Of a stretch of DNA of 64,000 bases, positions 29,667 to 56,733 are shown one piece after another (position 1 is the stretch's first letter; every line of letters begins with the position of its first letter). This stretch comes from CAVYHJ01 sp963768165 [NCBI: uncultured bacterium] (GTDB lineage Bacteria; UBP4; UBA4092), in the NCBI GenBank assembly GCA_963768165.1, contig CAVYHJ010000026.1, positions 558,001 through 622,000 of the forward strand. The letters are read 5' to 3'. The position numbers and the translations under genes were made by a program. The notes beneath the pieces were generated by a model. That model was not told where the DNA came from. It did no database searches and saw only the letters and a list, made by a program, of their open reading frames with translations.

Positions 29667-29723
29667 ATATGCAAAAGGTTTTCAAAGATAAATCCGTTGG
29701 CGAACCAATATAGGAGAATGGAA

Positions 29724-31174
29724 ATGAAAGTAAAAATGATTTTACCGGCATTAACGGAAGCAAAAAGTCCATTTTTCAGACCAATCAAGTATTCCTTGTT
29801 TCCACCTCTTGGACTGGCAACCCTGGCAGGTTATCTAAGGGACGAGGACGAGGTCACGATTCAAGATGAGCATGTAGAAATATTGGACTTAAACGATGAA
29901 CCGGATTTGGTAGTTATCCAGGTGTATATCACGTCGGCTTATCGGGCATATGAAATTGCCGACCATTATCGAAAGAAAGGAGCTTATATTGCCTTAGGGG
30001 GATTGCATGTTACTTCTCTGCCGATGGAATCGGCGCATCATGCGGATACTCTTTTTCTCGGACCGGGAGAGGATACCTGGCCAGAGTTTCTAAGAGATTA
30101 TCGCGCGGGAAATCCTGGACTGGTATATCAATCCAAAATACGTACGTTGATGGGATTACCGAAAATTCGCAGAGATTTAATCAAACGGCATCTTTATCTA
30201 GTTCCCAATTCAATTGTCGTGTCGCGCGGGTGTCCTCACGTGTGTGATTTCTGTTACAAAGAGGCGTTCTTTCGTGGCGGTAAATCCTTTTATACGCAAA
30301 CCGTGGATGATGCGTTGACAGAGATCGAGCGCCTTCCAGGAAAACATTTGTATTTTCTTGATGATCATCTTTTTGGCAACGCACAATTTGCGTCAGCGTT
30401 GTTTGATGGGATGAAAGGAATGGGCCGATTATGGCAAGCTGCTGGAACGGTAAAATCTATTTTGGCACCGGACTATTGGAAAAGGCGGCGGAGTGCGGGT
30501 TGCGAAGTTTGTTTGTAGGATTTGAAACATTGAATCAAGCCAATTTGCATTCCCAGCACAAATATCAAAACTTAAACCGTGATTATAATGCTGCAATCAA
30601 AAAATTGCATGATTTAGGAGTCATGATTAACGGTAGTTTTGTCTTTGGGATGGATGATGATGATAACCGTGTTTTCGAGCGTACCGTAGAATGGGCGATT
30701 CAGCAAGGGATTGAGACATCCACCTATCATATTCTAACCCCCTACCCGAGTACTGCACTCTATCAACGAATGAAACAAGAAAAACGGATTACCATCAACA
30801 ATTGGAACTTGTACGACACACGCCATGTTGTTTATTGTCCCGTCAAAATGAAACCACAGGAATTGGAAGATGGATACTGGAGAGCGTATAAGAATTTTTA
30901 TGAATGGAGTTCCATTTTAAAGGGAGCATGGTCTCACGAACACTTATTCGATAAGGTCCGACACGTCGCTTATGCTGGAGGGTGGAAAAAGATTGAACCG
31001 TTCTGGGATTGGGTTATCCGGGCAAAACGTGTAACCCACTTATTGCCTGTACTTGAATCTGTATTAAGCGGATTTGGGATCCATTCAGCAAAGAAGAAAG
31101 CAAAGGTTCTGCGTCAGGAAATCAAAATGGTTCCAGACGCGGGTTATGCATTAAATTATAGAAAGGAGATGTAA
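29724..31174 (+). CDS. B12-binding radical SAM protein, interrupted by a one-base frameshift
   Basis: The N-terminal ~130 residues form a cobalamin-binding-like domain (SLFPPLGLATLAGYL, VVIQVYITSAYRAYEIA, ALGGLHVTSLP). The radical SAM core follows with CPHVCDFC (CxxxCxxC) and YFLDDHLFGN. The frame then breaks: after ILAPD the continuation LLEKAAECGLRSLFVGFETLN is one base out, at about 30474. The second part runs to 31174 and completes a normal-length enzyme (HILTPYPSTALYQRM). The ATG at 29724 has AGGAG seven bases upstream. Reaction unknown; these enzymes often methylate or modify lipids, cofactors or natural products. ispH begins four bases after the stop, which hints at isoprenoid-linked chemistry (inference). 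Confidence 0.82.
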
Positions 31175-33242: not shown

Positions 33243-34364
33243 ATGAAAGTTGCAGTTGTTCATGAATATCTGAATCAGTATGGCGGGGCGGAACGGGTGC
33301 TGGAAGCTATCCATGAATTGTATCCGGAGGCACCAGTGTATACTCTGATTCATAATCCCGATTCCATGCCGGAGAGTTACAAAAAATGGGATATTCGACA
33401 ATCCACTTATCTGAAAAGTAAATTCATACGAAAACATTATAAATCTTTTTTTTTCCTTTATCCCGTCTTTATGGAACTATTCGATTTACGTGAATACGAT
33501 TTGGTCATAAGCAGTTCTTACGCCTACGCGCACGGCATTGTCACTTCTCCCAAAACCTGCCACATCTGTTTTTGCCATACCCCCATGCGGTTTGTTTGGG
33601 TTCAGCCGGAAGACTATCGCGATAAAGTACCCAAAAGTTTGCGTTGGGTTTATGACTTTTTGATTCATGGGCTGCGGTTATGGGATCAGGCAGCTTCACA
33701 GCGTCCCGATTATTATATTGCCGCCAGCCAAAATGTGGCGCAGCGCATCCAACGATATTATCGCCGGGATTCTACCGTCATTCATCCACCCGTGGATTTA
33801 TCTCAATTCCATATAGCTGATAAACCTTCGGATTATTACTTGCTCGTTTCGCGTCTCGTTTCACCCTATAAACGCATTGACCTAGCGATTCAAACCTTCA
33901 ATCATTTGGGTCTTCCTTTGAAAGTTGTTGGTGAAGGCTCTGACCGACATCAACTTCAAAAAATGGCGAAAAATAATATTCAATTCCTGGGACACCTTTC
34001 CGGTCAAAAACTAGTGGACGCTTACGCCCAATGCAAAGCCTTGATTTTCCCCGGAGAAGACGACTTTGGTATTGTCCCACTCGAAGCCAACGCCTGTGGT
34101 CGGCCTGTGATTGCCTATCGCGGTGGCGGTGTCCTGGAAACACAAATCGAAAATGTTACCGCCGTTTATTTTAATGAACCAACTTCAGGTTCTCTGATGG
34201 ACGCTGTTACAAAATTTGAATCTATGTCTTTCGATCCGCAGAAAATCCGCGAATCTGCATCTCGATTCGACAAGGAAATTTTCAAAAAGAAAATGTCGGA
34301 ATTCATAAATAATTCTTTGGCATCCTATCCTTCACAATATCAATTTCAGGTTATTCATTCATGA
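33243..34364 (+). CDS. GT4 family glycosyltransferase
   Basis: Retaining GT-B glycosyltransferase, probably in surface polysaccharide synthesis. The N-terminal Rossmann half begins VAVVHEYLNQYGGAERVL, with HTPMRFVW in the middle. The C-terminal half has LVSRLVSPYKRIDLAI, the donor-binding FPGEDDFGIVPLEANACG (E-x7-E) and GRPVIAYRGGG. Length of 373 is typical of WcaI/RfaB-like mannosyl- or rhamnosyltransferases; donor and acceptor are unknown. The stop overlaps the next start as ATGA at 34361. First gene of a three-gene coupled operon. Confidence 0.93.
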   Translation: MKVAVVHEYLNQYGGAERVLEAIHELYPEAPVYTLIHNPDSMPESYKKWDIRQSTYLKSKFIRKHYKSFFFLYPVFMELFDLREYDLVISSSYAYAHGIVTSPKTCHICFCHTPMRFVWVQPEDYRDKVPKSLRWVYDFLIHGLRLWDQAASQRPDYYIAASQNVAQRIQRYYRRDSTVIHPPVDLSQFHIADKPSDYYLLVSRLVSPYKRIDLAIQTFNHLGLPLKVVGEGSDRHQLQKMAKNNIQFLGHLSGQKLVDAYAQCKALIFPGEDDFGIVPLEANACGRPVIAYRGGGVLETQIENVTAVYFNEPTSGSLMDAVTKFESMSFDPQKIRESASRFDKEIFKKKMSEFINNSLASYPSQYQFQVIHS

Positions 34365-35761
34365 CACCGTCGGTCTTGATGGTGGTGTATTATTTTCCCC
34401 CGCAGGGCAGTGTACAAGTATTGCGCGCTTTAAAATTCGCCAAATACCTGCCTGAATTCGGCTGGAAACCGGTTATCCTTTCCGTTAAAGATATCCTGCA
34501 CTATTACAACGACCCGGATTTGATCAAAGAGTTACCGAATTCAGTTGAGATTCTCCGAACCAGTTCTCTTGATCCTTTTCGATTCATGGGTGTTTTAAAA
34601 AACCTCACCCCAACCATAAACCCTCACCCCAAAAAAAACGTAGAGTATCCAGCGCGCTGGATACCTACAGGGGGAGAGGGGGGAGGGAAGGAGAAGGGGA
34701 ATTGCGCAGGATACCTACAGGGAGAGGGGGGAGAGGATGTTTTCTTTCGCTTCCGTAATAAATTTAATGAACTAAACCGATGGCTGGCACTCCCGGATTC
34801 GAGATTTGGTTGGTATCCTTTTGCGGTTTCACAAGGTAGAAAAGCAATTAAGAACCAGGAGATTAAAATGATCTATTCTTCCTCGCCACCTAATATCGCC
34901 CATCTGGTGGCTTTAAAACTGCATCGGGAAACGGGATTACCTTGGATTGCCGATTTCAAAGATATGTGGGCGGATTATCCTCATAGTCTTCCGACGCAAT
35001 GGCATCGTCGGAAAATGCAGAATTGGGAAGAAAAAATTGTGACCCACGCATCCAAAGTCATCGCTATTAATCCTGCCATTACCAACGACTTTCAAAAACG
35101 TTATCCTTCCATTTCACCAGACCACTTCCAGACTCTGGTTCACGGATATGACCCGCTTGAATTTAGCGGACTGGTTCGTCAACCCTATCCTAAATTTACC
35201 ATTGTACATACCGGCAGTTTTTATGAACCGCGCCAAATTGCCGATTACTTTTTTAAAGCTATCGCAGAACTCTTACTCGATAAACCTGAACTGAAAGACA
35301 AAATGGAAATTATACTAGTGGGAACACTCACAAACCGTCAAAAAATGTTGATGGAAAATTTGCAACTAAACTCTGTTATCAAACTGGTAGGCTCTGTAAA
35401 CCGGAGGGAAGCCGTCCAATATCAAATCAACGCAGATGTTTTATTATTACTGGTCGGCGAAGGATACCGCAGTGAATTAGTGCTCCCTGCTAAAACATGG
35501 GAATATTTCGCCTCCGGTCATCCCATCTTATGTATGGCACCGCCGGGAGTAACCTCTGACCTTATTAAAAAACACAATGCTGGAATTGTCGTTTTACCAC
35601 AGGATGTTACAGCAATTAGAAAAGCAGTTGAAGATTTTTATCAACAATACTCCACCAATAGGTTATCCTCTGCCGATTCTTCCGTATATTCACAATACGA
35701 CAGGCGTAAAATCACCGGTGAACTAGCAAGTCTTTTTACACTATGCCTTCCCAAATCATGA
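34361..35761 (+). CDS. GT4-like glycosyltransferase with an in-frame repeat insertion
   Basis: GT-B enzyme: N-terminal VLMVVYYFPPQGSVQVLRALKFAKYL, LPWIADFKDMWADYP in the middle, and a C-terminal half with TIVHTGSFYEPRQIAD and LPAKTWEYFASGHPILCM. About 46 residues (LTPTINPHPKK... to GGEDV) between VLKN and FFRFRNKFNEL are encoded by low-complexity DNA at about 34602-34737 and are foreign to the family. Without them the length is about 420, normal for the group. The frame is kept. Both ends of the gene overlap neighbours as ATGA (34361 and 35758). Confidence 0.85.
   Translation: MTPSVLMVVYYFPPQGSVQVLRALKFAKYLPEFGWKPVILSVKDILHYYNDPDLIKELPNSVEILRTSSLDPFRFMGVLKNLTPTINPHPKKNVEYPARWIPTGGEGGGKEKGNCAGYLQGEGGEDVFFRFRNKFNELNRWLALPDSRFGWYPFAVSQGRKAIKNQEIKMIYSSSPPNIAHLVALKLHRETGLPWIADFKDMWADYPHSLPTQWHRRKMQNWEEKIVTHASKVIAINPAITNDFQKRYPSISPDHFQTLVHGYDPLEFSGLVRQPYPKFTIVHTGSFYEPRQIADYFFKAIAELLLDKPELKDKMEIILVGTLTNRQKMLMENLQLNSVIKLVGSVNRREAVQYQINADVLLLLVGEGYRSELVLPAKTWEYFASGHPILCMAPPGVTSDLIKKHNAGIVVLPQDVTAIRKAVEDFYQQYSTNRLSSADSSVYSQYDRRKITGELASLFTLCLPKS
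34602..34737. repeat. Low-complexity repeat inserted in a glycosyltransferase gene
   Basis: Begins CCTCACCCC..., contains the perfect 20-bp palindrome GTATCCAGCGCGCTGGATAC (34645-34664) and two similar direct repeats ATACCTACAGGG(GG)AGAGG (from 34661 and 34711). This C-rich to G-rich layout resembles known dispersed intergenic repeats. Confidence 0.7.
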
Positions 35762-40356: not shown

Positions 40357-40433
40357 CGGGGCGTAGCACAGCTGGCTAGCGCGCATGGTTTGGGACCATG
40401 AGGTCGCCGGTTCAAATCCGGCCGCCCCGACCA
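40357..40433 (+). tRNA. tRNA-Pro (anticodon TGG)
   Basis: 77-base cloverleaf: acceptor CGGGGCG pairs with CGCCCCG, anticodon loop TTTGGGA, T loop TTCAAAT, and encoded CCA at the 3' end. Confidence 0.97.
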
Positions 40434-40509
40434 GTCAAGACAAGTTTCGAGTTTTGGGTTTCGGATTAGAAACTCCAAACTCTACACTCTAAACTTTAAA
40501 CTATTGCAT

Positions 40510-40586
40510 GCGCCCGTAGCTCAGGTGGATAGAGCATCTGCCTTCTAAGCAGAGGGTCACAGGTTCGATTCCTGTCGGGCGCACCA
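40510..40586 (+). tRNA. tRNA-Arg (anticodon TCT)
   Basis: Acceptor GCGCCCG pairs with CGGGCGC; anticodon loop CTTCTAA between TCTGC and GCAGA; T loop TTCGATT; encoded CCA. Confidence 0.97.
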
Positions 40587-40695
40587 TGAAAAACATGTTC
40601 AATGAGTCCTTTGGCAATTGCTGAGACTACGTTTTTCGTGTAGAATCTTATACTTACCGTAATTAATCTTATGTTTATATTTATGCAAATTCGAT

Positions 40696-40774
40696 GGTGG
40701 GTGTAGCTCAACCTGGTTAGAGCACTAGATTGTGGATCTAGGGGTTGCGGGTTCAAATCCCGTCATCCACCCCA
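40696..40774 (+). tRNA. tRNA-His (anticodon GTG)
   Basis: Acceptor GTGGGTG pairs with CATCCAC, with the extra 5' G (G-1, 40696) opposite C73 that is diagnostic for tRNA-His. Anticodon loop TTGTGGA; encoded CCA. Confidence 0.97.
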
Positions 40775-40836
40775 ATAAAGAAAGTTTAAAGGTACCCCGT
40801 TTTAAACTTTCATAATTAAACAAAAAACTGTCGCAC

Positions 40837-40913
40837 GCGCCCATAGCTCAATTGGATAGAGCATCAGCCTACGGAGCTGGGGGTTGGGGGTTCGACTCCC
40901 TCTGGGCGCGCCA
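40837..40913 (+). tRNA. tRNA-Arg (anticodon ACG)
   Basis: Acceptor GCGCCCA pairs with TGGGCGC; anticodon loop CTACGGA, A34 presumably read as inosine; encoded CCA. Last of four same-strand tRNAs. Confidence 0.96.
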
Positions 40914-50226: not shown

Positions 50227-51234
50227 ATGACCAAAAAGAAATCTAGTTATAAAAGCATGAAACAAACATTGCGTAATTTGGCAGAACAAAACCAACTTTA
50301 TATGGGCACCTGTGTTTCTTATGATCCATTGGTTCAAGACACCTTTTATCGAGAAATTCTGGCGAGGGAGTTTAACATCCTGACTCCGGAGAACGCCATG
50401 AAATTCCAATGGACGGAACCGGAACAAAATAAATTCAATTTTAAAGAAGCGGATAAATTGGTCGAGTTCGCAGTACAAAATAAGATGAAAATCCGGGGAC
50501 ATACCTTGGTTTGGCATCAAGCCGTGCCACCCTGGGTGAAAAATGGGAAATTTACCAAAAAGGAATTAATGGAAATTCTTCATAATCATATCCGAAAACT
50601 TGTTCAGCATTATAAAGGTAGGATTTATTGTTGGGATGTGGTGAATGAAGCTTTTGAAACAGATGGAAGTTTTCGCCATAGCTTATGGTATGACACAATC
50701 GGTCCGGACTATATTGAAATGGCTTTCCAATGGGCACATGAAGCAGACCCTGATGCATTACTTTTCTATAATGACTATGATACGGAAAATCTAAATCCTA
50801 AATCGGATGCGATTTATTCATATCTGAAAAAATTAAAAGAAAAAGATATACCTATTGATGGAATCGGATTTCAATGTCATATTCTTGACAATCCAGATAT
50901 ACGATTGAATGAATTGGATGCCAATTTCAAGCGTTTCGCAGGATTGGGTTTTCAAACCGATATTACTGAAATCGATGTTTCTATCCAACTTTCAGAAGGG
51001 ACGTTGGAGAAAAAAATAAAAAAACAATCAGAGTTATATGCCGGAATACTGAAAGTATGCCGTGAGAATACCTCCTGCAAGATGTTCGTCTTATGGGGAT
51101 TCACAGATAAATATACCTGGGTTCGTTACCGGAAGGGTCATCAGGATGATTTACCATGTATTTTCGATGAACAATATCAACCCAAACCGATTTTTAACGA
51201 ACTTAAGAAAATTATAATAAAGAATCCTCCATAG
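50227..51234 (+). CDS. GH10 endo-1,4-beta-xylanase, cytoplasmic
   Basis: Retaining GH10 xylanase. The acid/base is E141 in WDVVNEAF and the nucleophile E248 in TDITEIDVS; substrate-binding motifs RGHTLVWHQAVPPW and the late FVLWGFTDKYTWV are intact. There is no signal peptide, so it acts in the cytoplasm, presumably on imported xylo-oligosaccharides; such single-domain intracellular GH10 enzymes are known. TAGGGAG precedes the start. Directly downstream lie remains of GH3 and GH39 genes that would complete xylo-oligosaccharide breakdown. Confidence 0.95.
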   Translation: MTKKKSSYKSMKQTLRNLAEQNQLYMGTCVSYDPLVQDTFYREILAREFNILTPENAMKFQWTEPEQNKFNFKEADKLVEFAVQNKMKIRGHTLVWHQAVPPWVKNGKFTKKELMEILHNHIRKLVQHYKGRIYCWDVVNEAFETDGSFRHSLWYDTIGPDYIEMAFQWAHEADPDALLFYNDYDTENLNPKSDAIYSYLKKLKEKDIPIDGIGFQCHILDNPDIRLNELDANFKRFAGLGFQTDITEIDVSIQLSEGTLEKKIKKQSELYAGILKVCRENTSCKMFVLWGFTDKYTWVRYRKGHQDDLPCIFDEQYQPKPIFNELKKIIIKNPP

Positions 51235-51430: not shown

Positions 51431-52763
51431 CCACATATCCCGGGTTCAATCGATCTCCAGTCTCAATATAGTTAACGTACGAGATAACTTACAGGTAACC
51501 TTATGCAAGATATTTTGGAAAGAAAATTGGAATTAGATTATAGAAAAGTCAAAGGTCCTTTGAACAGGATGTTTCAAGAATATATCGGTGCCGGAAGGGC
51601 TAATGAAGGATTACGCGGCGATTGGCAAAGACAATTGGCTTATGTAAAAAGAGAATGTAATTTTAAATATATTTGGATGCATGGCCTTTTAACGGATGAT
51701 ATGGGGGTCTATAAAGAAGAAAGGAAAGGGAACCCGCAATATAACTGGCAATATGCAATATATTGATGTATTGTATGATTTTATCCTGGGTTTAGGCATG
51801 AAACCTTTTGTGGAACTCAGTTTTATGCCTCAAGCTCTAGCCAGTGGGACTCAGACTATTTTTTGGTGGAGAGGGAATGTCACACCTCCCAAAGATTATG
51901 ATAAATGGGGTGCATTGATAGGAAGCCTAGTGCAGCATTTTACGGACAGATATGGGAAACAAGAAGTCATGACATTGTATTTTGAGGTTCGGAATGAACC
52001 GAATCTTAAAGATTTTTTACCGGCACTCAGGAAGATTGTTTTAAGCTTTATGAAGTTCCATCCAAAGCAATTAAAAGTGTATCTCCTGATTATAAACTAG
52101 GCGGGTCGGCCATAGCGGGTGCCGCATAGATACCTGAAACTATTCATTATTGTTATCAGTACCCATACCTATGGGGTTAATCAAGGGTATCTGGATGAAT
52201 ATGGTGAATCTGGTACTATACTGGATAATAATCCTCAAAGTATTGTCGGGGATATCCAAAAATCAAGAAGAGAAATCCAGAGTTCACCCCTGCCCAAACT
52301 GGAATTACATTACACAGAATGGAGTTTTTCCTATACTCCCTCCGACCCCATTCATGACAGTTATCATCAAGCGGCGTATATCCTGGAAAAAATTAAGCGA
52401 ACTGGAGACAACACCCATTCCATGTCCTACTGGGTATTTACCGCTATTTTTGAAGAAGCCGGTCCCCAGTTCACTCCGTTTCATGGAGGATTTGGTTTAA
52501 TCAATTATCAGAATATTCATAAACCCACTTTTTAATCGTATCAATTTTTAAATAAATTAGGGAATATGGATCTGGAGAATAAGGATTCTTCTTCCTGGGT
52601 AGTCAAAGATGAACAAGGGAATGTCCAGATGCTATTTTTGGATTTTACCCATACTCATCCCGGCGATTCGATCCTTAACCAGGTGTATTACAAACAAGAT
52701 TTACCTCCTATGACAGCTATAGTATTATATTCTTATGTTACTGTTTACAATAGTGGTTTGGGA

Positions 52764-52840
52764 GACTTTTTTTCACTGAGACTTCGTCTCTTTATAGAGT
52801 TTATCACTACTCAAAAGAAATATTGCGGTGAAAAAAAGTC
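52764..52840. repeat. Inverted repeat at the left junction of the insertion
   Basis: Perfect 13-bp arms GACTTTTTTTCAC (52764-52776) and its complement (52828-52840), enclosing a GAGAC-TTC-GTCTC hairpin. Possibly a small MITE-like element or part of the larger one. Confidence 0.45.
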
Positions 52841-53084
52841 CATTTCTTGATACGAAGACTCCTTGCAAAAAGCCAAAGTTAAGATGACAGCCCTCAAAAC
52901 CCTGAAAAAAAATCCCCCCCCCTCCTAAAAGCCCTGAAAAAGAACTGAATCAGATTAAAAGGAGTAGTGAAAAAGTGACGGAGCAAGTACGGCCTTGGTA
53001 CGGAGACAGTGTGTAGTCAGCTTTACATATTTTTACCTCATATTAGGAACGGTTATTAAGATGAATAATTATTTAAATTATGTT

Positions 53085-54044
53085 TTAGGTACGAACATTT
53101 GGCGGTTTAGGTTTTTGGTATTGTGCCATGAACTCATTGGGTGATTTGCCCAGTAAGCCGCAATGTTCCAGATGATTGTATTCTATATTCCAGCGTTTCA
53201 ATTTATTTTGCAAGTCTTGGAAGTTCTGGAAGGTGTTTTGGTCATAAAATTTCTCCTGGTCTTCCCGGTGACTTCGTTCGACGGTTCCATTTTGCGCGGG
53301 CTTTCCCGGATCAATAAGATAATGCACTATATTTCTTTCTTGGCAAAAGACATCCAGCGGGTGAAGGGTTTTCAGGGTTCGATCACGGCGTTTGTTTACG
53401 CCGGTGTAGTAGTTGGTGAAGATCACCCCGTTGTCAGTTTTAATCGCTTGTATTCTATGAGGGAAACGATCCAGGACCTCTTTTAAAAACCGGAGAGAGT
53501 GGAAACTGGATTGTTCGTCATAGACCGCCAAATGTCTCCAGCGGGACGCCAGATCAATGGCGGTATACTGATAATAGCGTTGTCCCGCTACCTTTCCGGG
53601 AACATACTTCACATCGATCTCTAGAAGTTCACCGACCGATCGTGGTGCTTTCAAATACTTGTATTTCATTTTCTTCACCCGATATTTCCTCACCAACCCT
53701 TCTTTCTTCAAGATCTTCCCGATAGTCCGTGCATGAATCCTCACTCCTTCTTTGGCCAAGTGCCAATGGATCTTTAGAGCGCACTTTTTCGTTTTCTTCC
53801 GGATTTCCAGAATTCTCTCTTTCACTCGGAGAGTGGTTTCTTTTGTACAAGTTTTGGGTCGGGTGGATTGCGGCTCCAAAGCCTTCTCTCCTCCTTTCCG
53901 ATACGCCGCCGCCCATCGCTCCAAACTTCGTTGGCTGTGTGGACAAATCTTACACACCTCCTTTAACCGTATCTCTTTCTTTATTATAGGTAATACCCAG
54001 CGTAATCGTTCCTCTTGAATCGTCGTTGCCATACGTATAGACAT
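53085..54044 (-). CDS. IS481-like transposase
   Basis: 319-residue DDE transposase. A helix-turn-helix region (KEIRLKEVCKICPHSQRSLERWAAAYRKGG) precedes the rve-type integrase core with D144 (EIDVKY), D204 (KTDNGVIF) and E256 (NGTVERSHREDQE). The reading frame is intact, so the element may still be active. The stop codon lies at the very edge of the left terminal repeat, as in compact insertion sequences. The start MSIRMATTIQ may also be the second Met. Confidence 0.93.
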   Translation of the reverse strand: MSIRMATTIQEERLRWVLPIIKKEIRLKEVCKICPHSQRSLERWAAAYRKGGEKALEPQSTRPKTCTKETTLRVKERILEIRKKTKKCALKIHWHLAKEGVRIHARTIGKILKKEGLVRKYRVKKMKYKYLKAPRSVGELLEIDVKYVPGKVAGQRYYQYTAIDLASRWRHLAVYDEQSSFHSLRFLKEVLDRFPHRIQAIKTDNGVIFTNYYTGVNKRRDRTLKTLHPLDVFCQERNIVHYLIDPGKPAQNGTVERSHREDQEKFYDQNTFQNFQDLQNKLKRWNIEYNHLEHCGLLGKSPNEFMAQYQKPKPPNVRT

Positions 54045-54081
54045 CTCCTCATTCTAAAAAACCCGCCATATGTCTGTACAC
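53085..54081 (-). mobile_element. IS481-like insertion sequence, about 1.0 kb
   Basis: Imperfect terminal inverted repeats: 53088-53108 (GGTACGAACATTTGGCGGTT...) and, reversed, 54079-54059 (GTACAGACATATGGCGGGTT...), about 17 of 21 positions equal. They enclose the transposase tightly. Element ends are estimated to a few bases. Confidence 0.7.
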
Positions 54082-54401
54082 ATTACCATTACCCCTTGAC
54101 AATTCATTTTTTTTATACTATATGCGTTGGTTTGAATTACCCAACATTCTGTTGGGAAAAAAACTGACAGCGAGCTCGATTCATTCCTTAAGAGTTTAAC
54201 TCTTCTAGAGAAGACTGAGCCTTGCGGGTCGACGTTAAAGTTATGGTGCTTTAAAGCTCGAATAGGAGAATCGTTCATTTACCCGCGTGGTAAATAGAAC
54301 CAATAGTTTTAGGTGACTTAACGTATGACGCATGTTGACAGTTCTTGTTAGCTTGGTTTGAATCGTTTCTGATTTTGTTGGAGGTTTTATTAAATCGCAA
54401 A

Positions 54402-54420
54402 AACCCCAATTGAAAATTGG
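54402..54420 (+). repeat. Small perfect hairpin
   Basis: CCCCAATT-GAA-AATTGGGG in the larger insertion, at the 5' side of the 65-codon ORF. Confidence 0.5.
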
Positions 54421-54607
54421 GGTACAAACATACGAGCAATATAGAAAAGAAGTTGAATTAATAGCTCAAATCCCTAATGCTGAGTTTGAGCAATTTCAAC
54501 CGGAAAAAATAATCCTACCCTACGGCATCGGGATCGATATGCATTTTCGCTTTATCCAAGGCTGTGTCTTGTTCACCACACCTTCCGCTATGGGGCTGTC
54601 ATCTTAA
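54410..54607 (+). CDS. 65-codon ORF inside the larger insertion
   Basis: Reads GVQTYEQYRKEVELIAQIPN and ends in the right terminal repeat (FTTPSAMGLSS). No family recognised, start uncertain (TTG at 54410 not supported by a ribosome site). It may be a fragment of the host element's lost gene. Confidence 0.25.
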   Translation: MKIGVQTYEQYRKEVELIAQIPNAEFEQFQPEKIILPYGIGIDMHFRFIQGCVLFTTPSAMGLSS

Positions 54608-55005
54608 CTTTGGCTTTTTGCAATCCGTCTTCTCACAGCAAAGGGAAAATTAAATTGGCTATGACTCATATTTCTTCAGGAAAGTATGAGTTTAAGATCT
54701 ATAAAATTGGATACCGGATAAATGACCCTTATTCCACATATCTGGATTTGGGTTCTCCAAATCAACTTACTCGTTCACAAAGTGAACTCATTAAGAAAAA
54801 TAATGACGGATCCCCTGTAACTAAATCCATTATAGATATTCCGAATAGTTCAGCATTTACCCAAGAATTTGATTGCAGAGAAAATGATTTCTTCCTGGTA
54901 ACTCTTGTAAAAATACGAATTCATCTGAAGATTGCCTGTCCTGAGGATACTTCAAGATAGTTTGTCTATTATAATTTCTTCAAAACTCCTGTACGTCTAC
55001 CCCCT

Positions 55006-56637
55006 CTAATGGTGACTTGGTTTAGGAGTGTTTAGAATCATATGGGTAACTGTTAAAGGTGGAAGATTATAGATAAAGGAATTATCTTTTATCCCGAATG
55101 GAACAGGGCCTGTGATAGAAGTTGAACTGCTTGTTATCGAATAGGTAATCCCATTTTGATATTTGGTTTTACTATTAATCTTAAACTTTCCTTTAATAGA
55201 TTGGGTCATGTTTTTATTTAATACCATAATATGCAATTCCGAAAGATTATTTCGCATTACAGAAGCATAGACTGAACTATTGACTGTATCACTCATGAGT
55301 GCTTGAACATTGATATCGCCATATTTCGAATGTTTCCCATCATAATTTTGGTACATTTGAAATGCCAATAGGGCATACGTGTTGGATTCCACCCTTGGCC
55401 ATAGACATGCGGCGTATACACCATATTTACCAAATACTCCCAAGACATCCGCCTGAGTTACTCCGCCTGTAATATCCCAGGATGCGCCAAAATCATATTC
55501 GGTGAATGCCAGTTTAGTCCCGGGATAATATTGATTTATGGAAGACTGGATGGTCGGAATTAACGGTAAATATTGAGTTCGCCATTTCCCAACCCAACTG
55601 TTTTCGAAATAATTCTTATCCCAGAACGTTCGCGGGGATTGAAGTCTTTCCAGTTTATCCTTCACCGAATCATTATTGGGATTAGTATAACAAAATCGAT
55701 GGTCACCTTGTCCTTCGGGATAATCATGCAAATCTAAAACATCCAACAACCTCTGATGACTGGCTTTGGAATACTGATTCATTTTATCCAGGAATAAATC
55801 AATAAACCATCTATAATCCTTACCGGTTGTTGAACTGACCCAATCGGGTGGTTGTCCTAAATCCAGATAACTTCCCATCCCCATCAATACCGGGGCATAT
55901 ATCTCAGCAGTCGAATCAACCGATTTAATAGATGATGAATAGGCAACTGTCTTTTGGATTAATTCGTTACACTCAGTTTTATCAGGATGAATTCGGGGAT
56001 GTGAGTTATGCCATAGAGCAGGTTCATTATCCAATGAATACGCTTTCACCCCTTTTTGGGCAGCCAAACCATATTTGTTTACCAGGAAATTGACACATTC
56101 ATCGATATATACCGTGTTGCTATCCAGAGTTGGTGTCAAGGTAAATGGGGCACCCTTGTTGGGAGCTACTACACACCATCTTGCAGAAGGAGCGGTTTCT
56201 GTAGTACCTACAGGCCCATTTTTATCTTTTGCCACATATCCCGCTATAGGCAGAGTCAGGAGACAGGAAGCATTTTTACTGGCAGATCTATCAACGAAAG
56301 CAGTCAATAAACGTCCTGGTGTATTAGCATCAGTACTACTGATCTCGAAAATATCAGTCATCCAACCATCGTTTTGTTGACGGTAATCACTTCCCGCATT
56401 GGTTGCATTATTGACCCAGTTATATCCTGTTAGCCTGTTACCACCCAACCGATAGAAAGAAAAATTCTCGTCTTTGGTGATAGCCTTATTGTAGTTTCCC
56501 CAATAATTGGTTCCATAGATATAAGGACTGATAGTTAACCGGTCATATTGGGGTGAAATTGTGTAAGAAACATTTATTTCAGCTCCCCCAAAAATCGTTA
56601 AATTGATCATGAAGACAAACAGATAAAATTTTTTCAT
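55006..56637 (-). CDS. Secreted GH44 endoglucanase/xyloglucanase
   Basis: Signal peptide MKKFYLFVFMINLTIFGGA, then a full GH44 catalytic module. The acid/base is E205 in YSLDNEPALWHNSHPRIHP, the hallmark of the family, and the nucleophile E380 in LAFTEYDFG. Also visible are FYRLGGNRLTGYNWVNN and LDLHDYPEGQG. No carbohydrate-binding module or dockerin is attached. GH44 enzymes cleave beta-1,4-glucans, xyloglucan or mixed substrates. The ATG at 56637 has AAAGGAT upstream; the frame extends to 56685. It lies just after the transporter genes on the same strand. Confidence 0.93.
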   Translation of the reverse strand: MKKFYLFVFMINLTIFGGAEINVSYTISPQYDRLTISPYIYGTNYWGNYNKAITKDENFSFYRLGGNRLTGYNWVNNATNAGSDYRQQNDGWMTDIFEISSTDANTPGRLLTAFVDRSASKNASCLLTLPIAGYVAKDKNGPVGTTETAPSARWCVVAPNKGAPFTLTPTLDSNTVYIDECVNFLVNKYGLAAQKGVKAYSLDNEPALWHNSHPRIHPDKTECNELIQKTVAYSSSIKSVDSTAEIYAPVLMGMGSYLDLGQPPDWVSSTTGKDYRWFIDLFLDKMNQYSKASHQRLLDVLDLHDYPEGQGDHRFCYTNPNNDSVKDKLERLQSPRTFWDKNYFENSWVGKWRTQYLPLIPTIQSSINQYYPGTKLAFTEYDFGASWDITGGVTQADVLGVFGKYGVYAACLWPRVESNTYALLAFQMYQNYDGKHSKYGDINVQALMSDTVNSSVYASVMRNNLSELHIMVLNKNMTQSIKGKFKINSKTKYQNGITYSITSSSTSITGPVPFGIKDNSFIYNLPPLTVTHMILNTPKPSHH

Positions 56638-56733
56638 AAAAGATCCTTTCGTTAAAGTATTTAATCTAATTGAAACATATAACACATATTCAAATATATT
56701 TTTGAAAGATTCCTATTCACACTAAATAAATTA

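What the first reader, a model, noticed from the sequence alone, without database searches (positions are those of the whole stretch)
52700..54640. Nested mobile elements inside GH39
An IS481-like element with 21-bp imperfect ends sits inside a ~0.77 kb element with 31-bp perfect inverted repeats, which splits GH39; a further 13-bp inverted repeat lies at the left junction. The outer element has no recognisable transposase and could be a non-autonomous (MITE-like) family.
Basis: seen in the sequence. Interest (0 to 1): 0.6.

Follow-up and report, generated by a model that had tools for sequence, protein, structure and literature searches.

The report
Nested insertions in a dead GH39 gene
A worn-out sugar-cutting enzyme gene has been interrupted by insertions stacked inside one another: an ordinary IS481-type jumping gene sits in a small gene-less piece with matching ends that looks like a passenger transposon but whose relatives could not be found.

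Summary
The sequence observation holds. A GH39 beta-xylosidase pseudogene (51.5-54.96 kb) is interrupted between 52717/52718 and 54640. Inside lie: (A) about 158 bp with a 13-bp perfect hairpin; (B) 768 bp with 31-bp perfect inverted ends (52863-52893 / 54593-54623) and TCC on both sides; (C) inside B, an IS481-type insertion sequence of about 993 bp with an uninterrupted 319-aa transposase frame and 16/21 ends. Two refinements: TCC is the centre of an otherwise palindromic site (GAAGAC-TCC-GTCTTC), so B reads as an insertion into a small hairpin loop with a 3-bp duplication; and GH39 is already interrupted at 52718, before B. The family claim (MITE-like) could not be tested: the host genome is not held. 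An exact 22-base core of the end is absent from genome contigs (84,980 species) and viral contigs (2.9 million); no second copy is in the window, and plasmids give only chance-level hits; phages were searched only with the right arm. Pfam finds no transposase in 10 of 12 frames of B's arms and flank. Best reading: a non-autonomous or decayed transposon that later took an IS481-type insertion. Ordinary genome decay, low interest.

The parts
51503..52718 (+). 5' part of a GH39 beta-xylosidase pseudogene: 51503-51766 in frame 2, then about 51750-52022, 52119-52535 and 52566-52718 in frame 0 with stop codons between
   Evidence: Pfam PF01229 for 51503-51766 and 52119-52535; phmmer to solved GH39 beta-xylosidases in successive chain ranges; frames
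52719..52862 (.). Stretch A, left part: first insertion in GH39 (start uncertain by a few bp), A+T-rich
   Evidence: GH39 alignment resumes at 54640; adding Met-Thr-Ala before the junction raises the score against 8i0j_A from 49.6 to 53.9 bits; 33% G+C for 52711-52862
52764..52840 (.). 13-bp perfect inverted repeat forming a 77-nt hairpin in stretch A
   Evidence: ssDNA fold of 52756-52865, z -2.32, 2 of 200 shuffles as stable; 0 of 2000 shuffles hold a perfect 13-bp pair
52854..52859 (.). GAAGAC, left half of the palindromic site around B
   Evidence: empty site built by script
52860..52862 (+). TCC, left copy of the putative 3-bp target duplication of B
52863..52893 (+). Left 31-bp terminal inverted repeat of B
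52863..54623 (.). Element B (1761 bp with the IS481-type element, 768 bp without)
   Evidence: no Pfam transposase in 10 of the 12 translated frames of 52711-53088 and 54082-54640
53088..54080 (-). Element C, IS481-type insertion sequence, 16/21 imperfect ends
53085..54044 (-). Uninterrupted transposase ORF, 319 aa; its stop codon (53085-53087) lies just outside the inferred left end
54593..54623 (-). Right 31-bp terminal inverted repeat of B
54624..54626 (+). TCC, right copy of the putative 3-bp target duplication of B
54627..54639 (.). Stretch A, right part: GTCTTC (right half of the palindromic site) and 7 more bases ending in ACAGC
54640..54960 (+). 3' part of the GH39 pseudogene (KGKIKL... 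onwards), frame 1

Best explanation
Three successive insertions in a decaying GH39 gene. First, about 158 bp (A) with hairpins entered GH39. Second, a 768-bp element without a recognised transposase (B), with 31-bp terminal inverted repeats, entered a 15-bp palindrome at the right edge of A; cuts staggered by 3 bp across the loop, filled in by the host, left TCC on both sides. B would have been moved in trans by a transposase encoded elsewhere that recognises the 31-bp ends. Third, an IS481-type element (C), with its own integrase-core (DDE-type) transposase, entered B. Shown: the layout, the perfect 31-bp ends, the TCC repeat, the uninterrupted C reading frame, the GH39 interruption and its other defects. 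Inferred: the order, the movement in trans, the hairpin-loop target, and that B is a mobile element at all (one copy only).
For: 31-bp perfect ends far beyond chance. TCC directly repeated immediately outside both ends, and the joined flanks give GAAGACTCCGTCTTC. 31 of 31 matching ends with no transposase found by Pfam in 10 of 12 frames fits an element moved in trans better than a long-dead insertion sequence. C has rve, rve_3 and HTH_28 domains above their cut-offs and lies wholly between the ends of B. GH39 aligns across the whole insertion with at most about one residue missing.
Against: No second copy of B or A found: exact 22-base core 0 in genome contigs and 0 in viral contigs; a degenerate end 0 in viral contigs; window: nothing longer than 14 bases besides the arms themselves for either arm of B; plasmids only chance-level or none, phages none for the right arm. 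A given 3-bp repeat occurs by chance once in 64. The 6+6 palindrome around TCC could instead be part of a 40-nt inverted repeat with 3 mismatches. The 8-mer ATGACAGC inside each 31-bp arm also stands at the GH39 left junction (52710-52717), its only other occurrence in the window; this model does not explain it. C has no exact duplication of 4 bp or more at its inferred ends.
Confidence: 0.6

Rival explanations
1. B is the decayed remnant of an autonomous insertion sequence that lost most of its transposase gene, not a member of a MITE family.
For: Short coding-like stretches remain, e.g. a run in the right arm with GIGIDMHFRFIQGCVL, which recalls (from memory only) the first catalytic motif of DEDD transposases such as IS110 (frames printed).
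Against: No Pfam transposase in 10 of 12 frames or for three hand-picked peptides; in both calls the only hit is a sub-cut-off one to Hs1pro-1_N. tblastn to plasmids gives one record, E 6; to phages 8 records, best E 2, a minor tail protein; no PDB match up to E 10; a back-translated YGIGIDMH pattern has 0 hits in viral contigs. The fragment is short, so these tests are weak. IS110 elements, as recalled, have no such terminal inverted repeats.
Confidence: 0.2
2. The inverted repeat is inside-out: the 40-nt arms are two ends of another insertion sequence (GGGCTGTCATCTTAACTTTGGCTTTTTGCAA, reading outward), left by rearrangement, and the middle is not an element.
For: The match continues past the 31 bp to GAAGAC/GTCTTC after 3 mismatches; ends beginning GGGCTGTC look insertion-sequence-like from memory; ATGACAGC recurs at the GH39 junction.
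Against: The three mismatched bases are the same word (TCC) in direct orientation, as a target duplication predicts; only 16 bases lie between the right 31-bp arm and GH39, and GH39 is hardly shortened.
Confidence: 0.12
3. Stretch A is an IS200/IS605-type non-autonomous element, with subterminal hairpins and no target duplication; the palindrome is its right-end hairpin.
For: The single-strand DNA fold of A puts a 6-bp, 3-nt-loop hairpin 7 nt from its right end, a weak 6-pair hairpin (one G-T pair) 22 nt from its left end and a large hairpin between; the sequence left of the insertion (GACAGC) resembles the right end (CACAGC); GH39 joins in frame between 52718 and 54640 without a duplication. 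The family features are recalled.
Against: No relatives to test the ends against; the fold of A was not compared with shuffles; a 5-bp repeat ACAGC could equally be a target duplication. This explains A, not B.
Confidence: 0.12

Closest known systems
IS481 family insertion sequences
   Same: Inner element C: 319-aa integrase-core transposase matching NF033577 over residues 13-304; right end begins TGT
   Different: 209.1 bits is under the curated cut-off of 224, but so is a phage-record relative (213.8), and 0 of 14 control genomes pass it; left end begins GGT; no clear target duplication; all 1478 plasmid records matched are under 60% identity, the 30 listed 27-32%; 4 phage records, 31-34%
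Prokaryotic MITEs (miniature inverted-repeat elements)
   Same: B has inverted ends of 31 bp, no recognised gene and a short flanking direct repeat; PMC10969869 (passages) gives ends of about 4-30 bp and flanking direct repeats in younger copies
   Different: 768 bp is longer than the typical under 500 bp stated there, it lies inside a gene rather than between genes, and no second copy is known
REP-targeting insertion sequences (IS1397, ISKpn1, IS621)
   Same: Insertion into a palindromic sequence (PMC1525189, passages)
   Different: The palindrome here is a single 15-bp site, not a known repeated REP; B has no transposase to compare

Membership tests
IS481 family (element C) | IS481-type transposase | tested here: met
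   NF033577 is the best of 5 families, E 9e-62, though 209.1 bits is below the curated 224; none of 14 control genomes passes that cut-off either; Pfam rve, rve_3 and HTH_28 above cut-offs. Catalytic residues were not aligned
IS481 family (element C) | Terminal inverted repeats, TGT...ACA (recalled for bacterial IS481; the passages state it for eukaryotic IS481EU) | tested here: inconclusive
   16 of 21 matching, 2 of 300 shuffles as good; right end TGT, left end GGT
IS481 family (element C) | Target duplication, 2-15 bp, mostly 6 (PMC10045372, passages) | tested here: inconclusive
   No exact repeat of 4 bp or more directly outside the inferred ends; GTAC near both ends could be a 4-bp duplication if the ends are moved inward. 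Shorter or imperfect repeats were not tested
MITE (element B) | Terminal inverted repeats | tested here: met
   31 of 31
MITE (element B) | Flanking target duplication | tested here: inconclusive
   TCC on both sides, one copy only, 1 in 64 by chance
MITE (element B) | No transposase gene of its own | tested here: met
   No Pfam transposase in 10 of 12 frames; 2 left minus-strand frames not scanned
MITE (element B) | Multiple copies in the genome | not testable with these tools
   Own genome not held; none in the window or collections searched
MITE (element B) | Parent element with the same ends | not testable with these tools
   Own genome not held; end sequence not found in the collections searched
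IS110 family (remnant in B) | DEDD transposase domain | tested here: inconclusive
   No match with Pfam, PDB, plasmids or phages; the fragment is too short for a strong test
IS200/IS605 (stretch A) | Subterminal hairpins and no target duplication | tested here: inconclusive
   Right hairpin present, left one weak; ACAGC repeat of 5 bp present

The most novel reading that the evidence does not exclude
B is the first seen copy of an undescribed non-autonomous transposon family whose transposase places it in the loop of short DNA hairpins with a 3-bp duplication, and A is the kind of hairpin element it feeds on.
Probability: 0.15. Interest if true: 0.35.

Novelty: new member of a known kind. Interest (0 to 1): 0.12.

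Why it matters
If B is a real family, its insertions would mark recent transposase activity in a lineage not held in the genome collection and show another transposon that prefers hairpin targets. As it stands it is a good example of a gene dying under stacked insertions, a common sight in bacterial genomes.

Tried and rejected
IS110 remnant in B: a recalled motif only, no support in Pfam, PDB, plasmids, phages or viral contigs, though the fragment is short. A Piscirickettsia plasmid match to the end sequence (29 bp, 86%, E 2) near transposase genes was looked at; the best match in that stretch is 17 bases at 94%, and the other listed matches there are 11 bases or fewer, so it was treated as chance. 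Rfam: 5 matches up to E 5 in 52500-54800, all far below their gathering scores; none in that stretch at gathering scores. A search for relatives of the host by a 915-aa tRNA nucleotidyltransferase in genome contigs: 30 stretches matched a pattern, none confirmed as a relative. IS481-type transposase in viral contigs: 1 stretch matched, none confirmed. The A hairpin core in viral contigs: 0. Promoter and terminator scans of 52700-54640 were near shuffle levels (7 against a mean of 3.7; 2 against 2.2). The host's phylum was not determined.

Not done: 2 of 12 frames (left arm, minus strand) were not scanned with Pfam; stretch A and the left arm of B were not compared with phages; no metagenome scan was available; no control with three arbitrary residues was run for the Met-Thr-Ala comparison.

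Full report
What is there. The GH39 gene is a pseudogene. Its pieces match solved GH39 beta-xylosidases in order: 51503-51766 (1px8_A 19-81), 51696-52100 (1px8_A 78-168), 52119-52535 (8i0j_A 233-359), then the C-terminal part (8i0j_A 397-506) once the pieces on the two sides of the insertion are read together. The first piece is in frame 2, the next three in frame 0, the last in frame 1; frame 0 has stop codons between the pieces, one of them at 52533-52535 inside the gene. By eye a further short GH39-like stretch around 52.02-52.13 kb is back in frame 2 (not tested by a search). Long open reading frames lie on both sides: 50227-51234 (GH10-like by reading, no call) and GH44 at 55006-56685.

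Where GH39 is interrupted. The C-terminal alignment improves by 2.3 to 4.3 bits for all five matched GH39 sequences if the residues Met-Thr-Ala, coded by 52710-52718, are counted as GH39 (49.6 to 53.9 bits for 8i0j_A, 48.3 to 50.6 for 4ekj_A, 45.9 to 48.3 for 6uqj_A). No control with arbitrary residues was run, so the gain may in part be one gap saved. On this reading the insertion starts at about 52718 and ends at 54639, about 145 bp to the left of element B. The frames join directly between 52718 and 54640; alternatively ACAGC (52713-52717 and 54635-54639) is a 5-bp duplication and one base has since been lost or gained. These cannot be told apart here.

Stretch A. Without B, 158 bp remain. 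They hold a 13-bp perfect inverted repeat (52764-52776 / 52828-52840), not seen in 2000 shuffles. Folding of 52756-52865 as single-stranded DNA gives -13.6 kcal/mol against a shuffle mean of -8, z -2.32, with 2 of 200 shuffles as stable. Searches with its sequence found nothing: a 24-base core in viral contigs, 52700-53087 in plasmids at E up to 1, and in the window nothing beyond 13-base matches.

Element B. The ends are 31 of 31 identical, TTGCAAAAAGCCAAAGTTAAGATGACAGCCC. On the top strand TCC stands directly outside each end, and outside that GAAGAC on the left and GTCTTC on the right. Taking B out gives GAAGACTCCGTCTTC, a hairpin with TCC as its loop. Two readings compete: a 3-bp duplication at a palindromic site, or a 40-nt inverted repeat with three mismatches. 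That the three mismatched bases are the same word in direct orientation favours the first (my estimate: about 1 in 27 by chance under the second). Pfam finds no transposase in 10 of the 12 frames of 52711-53088 and 54082-54640; the only hit is Hs1pro-1_N, 12.2 bits against a cut-off of 25.

Copies elsewhere. In the window neither arm of B matches anything else over more than 14 bases. An exact 22-base core of the end has 0 matches in genome contigs and 0 in viral contigs; a degenerate 21-base pattern has 0 in viral contigs. Plasmids give chance-level hits for the end (12 records, 11 of them Piscirickettsia, E 2 or worse) and for the right arm (27 records, best E 0.5). Phages give none for the right arm at E up to 1. 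The host genome is not held, and a search of genome contigs with six octapeptides of a 915-aa host protein confirmed no relative (30 stretches matched, 0 confirmed), so the host species is probably absent from it. The lack of a second copy is therefore weak evidence.

Element C. The 319-aa reading frame is uninterrupted and matches NF033577 (IS481) at E 9e-62, 209.1 bits, under the curated cut-off of 224. A relative in a phage record scores 213.8, also under it, and none of the 14 control genomes passes, though 9 have weaker matches. Pfam rve, rve_3 and HTH_28 are above their cut-offs. All 1478 plasmid records matched are under 60% identity, the 30 listed being 27 to 32%; 4 phage records match at 31 to 34%. 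Its ends match at 16 of 21 positions, 53088-53108 and 54060-54080. No exact repeat of 4 bp or more stands directly outside them. IS481 elements make 2 to 15 bp duplications, mostly 6 (PMC10045372, passages). The transposase stop codon (53085-53087) lies outside the inferred left end, so either the end is a few bases further out or the gene takes its stop from the target.

Order of events (inferred). A in GH39, B in A, C in B, because each lies wholly inside the one before. C's reading frame is uninterrupted while GH39 is broken in several places, which fits C being the youngest.

Against this reading. The 8-mer ATGACAGC, part of each 31-bp arm, also stands at the GH39 junction; these three places are its only occurrences in the window on either strand. 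About two occurrences of any 8-mer are expected in 64 kb on both strands, but not at that place. I cannot explain it. It may be chance, or a sign that A and B share a history.

Known kinds. Prokaryotic MITEs are described with total length typically under 500 bp, ends of about 4-30 bp and flanking direct repeats in younger copies (PMC10969869, passages). B is longer and has one known copy. Insertion into repeated palindromes (REPs) is known for IS1397, ISKpn1 and IS621 (PMC1525189, passages). Nothing here needs a new kind of element.

Noticed in passing
29697-31174: A B12-binding protein with a sub-cut-off radical SAM match appears split into two overlapping reading frames (29697-30518 and 30431-31174, the second with DUF4070), which suggests a frameshift in another gene of the window (Pfam).
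   Followed up: partly
34654-34736: A 33-nt G-rich direct repeat (88% identical, spacing 50) lies inside a glycosyltransferase reading frame, 34361-35761.
   Followed up: no
53085-53087: The stop codon of the IS481-type transposase lies just outside the inferred left end of the element.
   Followed up: no
52710-52717, 52884-52891, 54595-54602: The 8-mer ATGACAGC (inverted at the last place) marks the GH39 junction and both 31-bp arms and occurs nowhere else in the window.
   Followed up: partly
40357-40913: Cluster of four tRNA genes (Pro, Arg, His, Arg).
   Followed up: no
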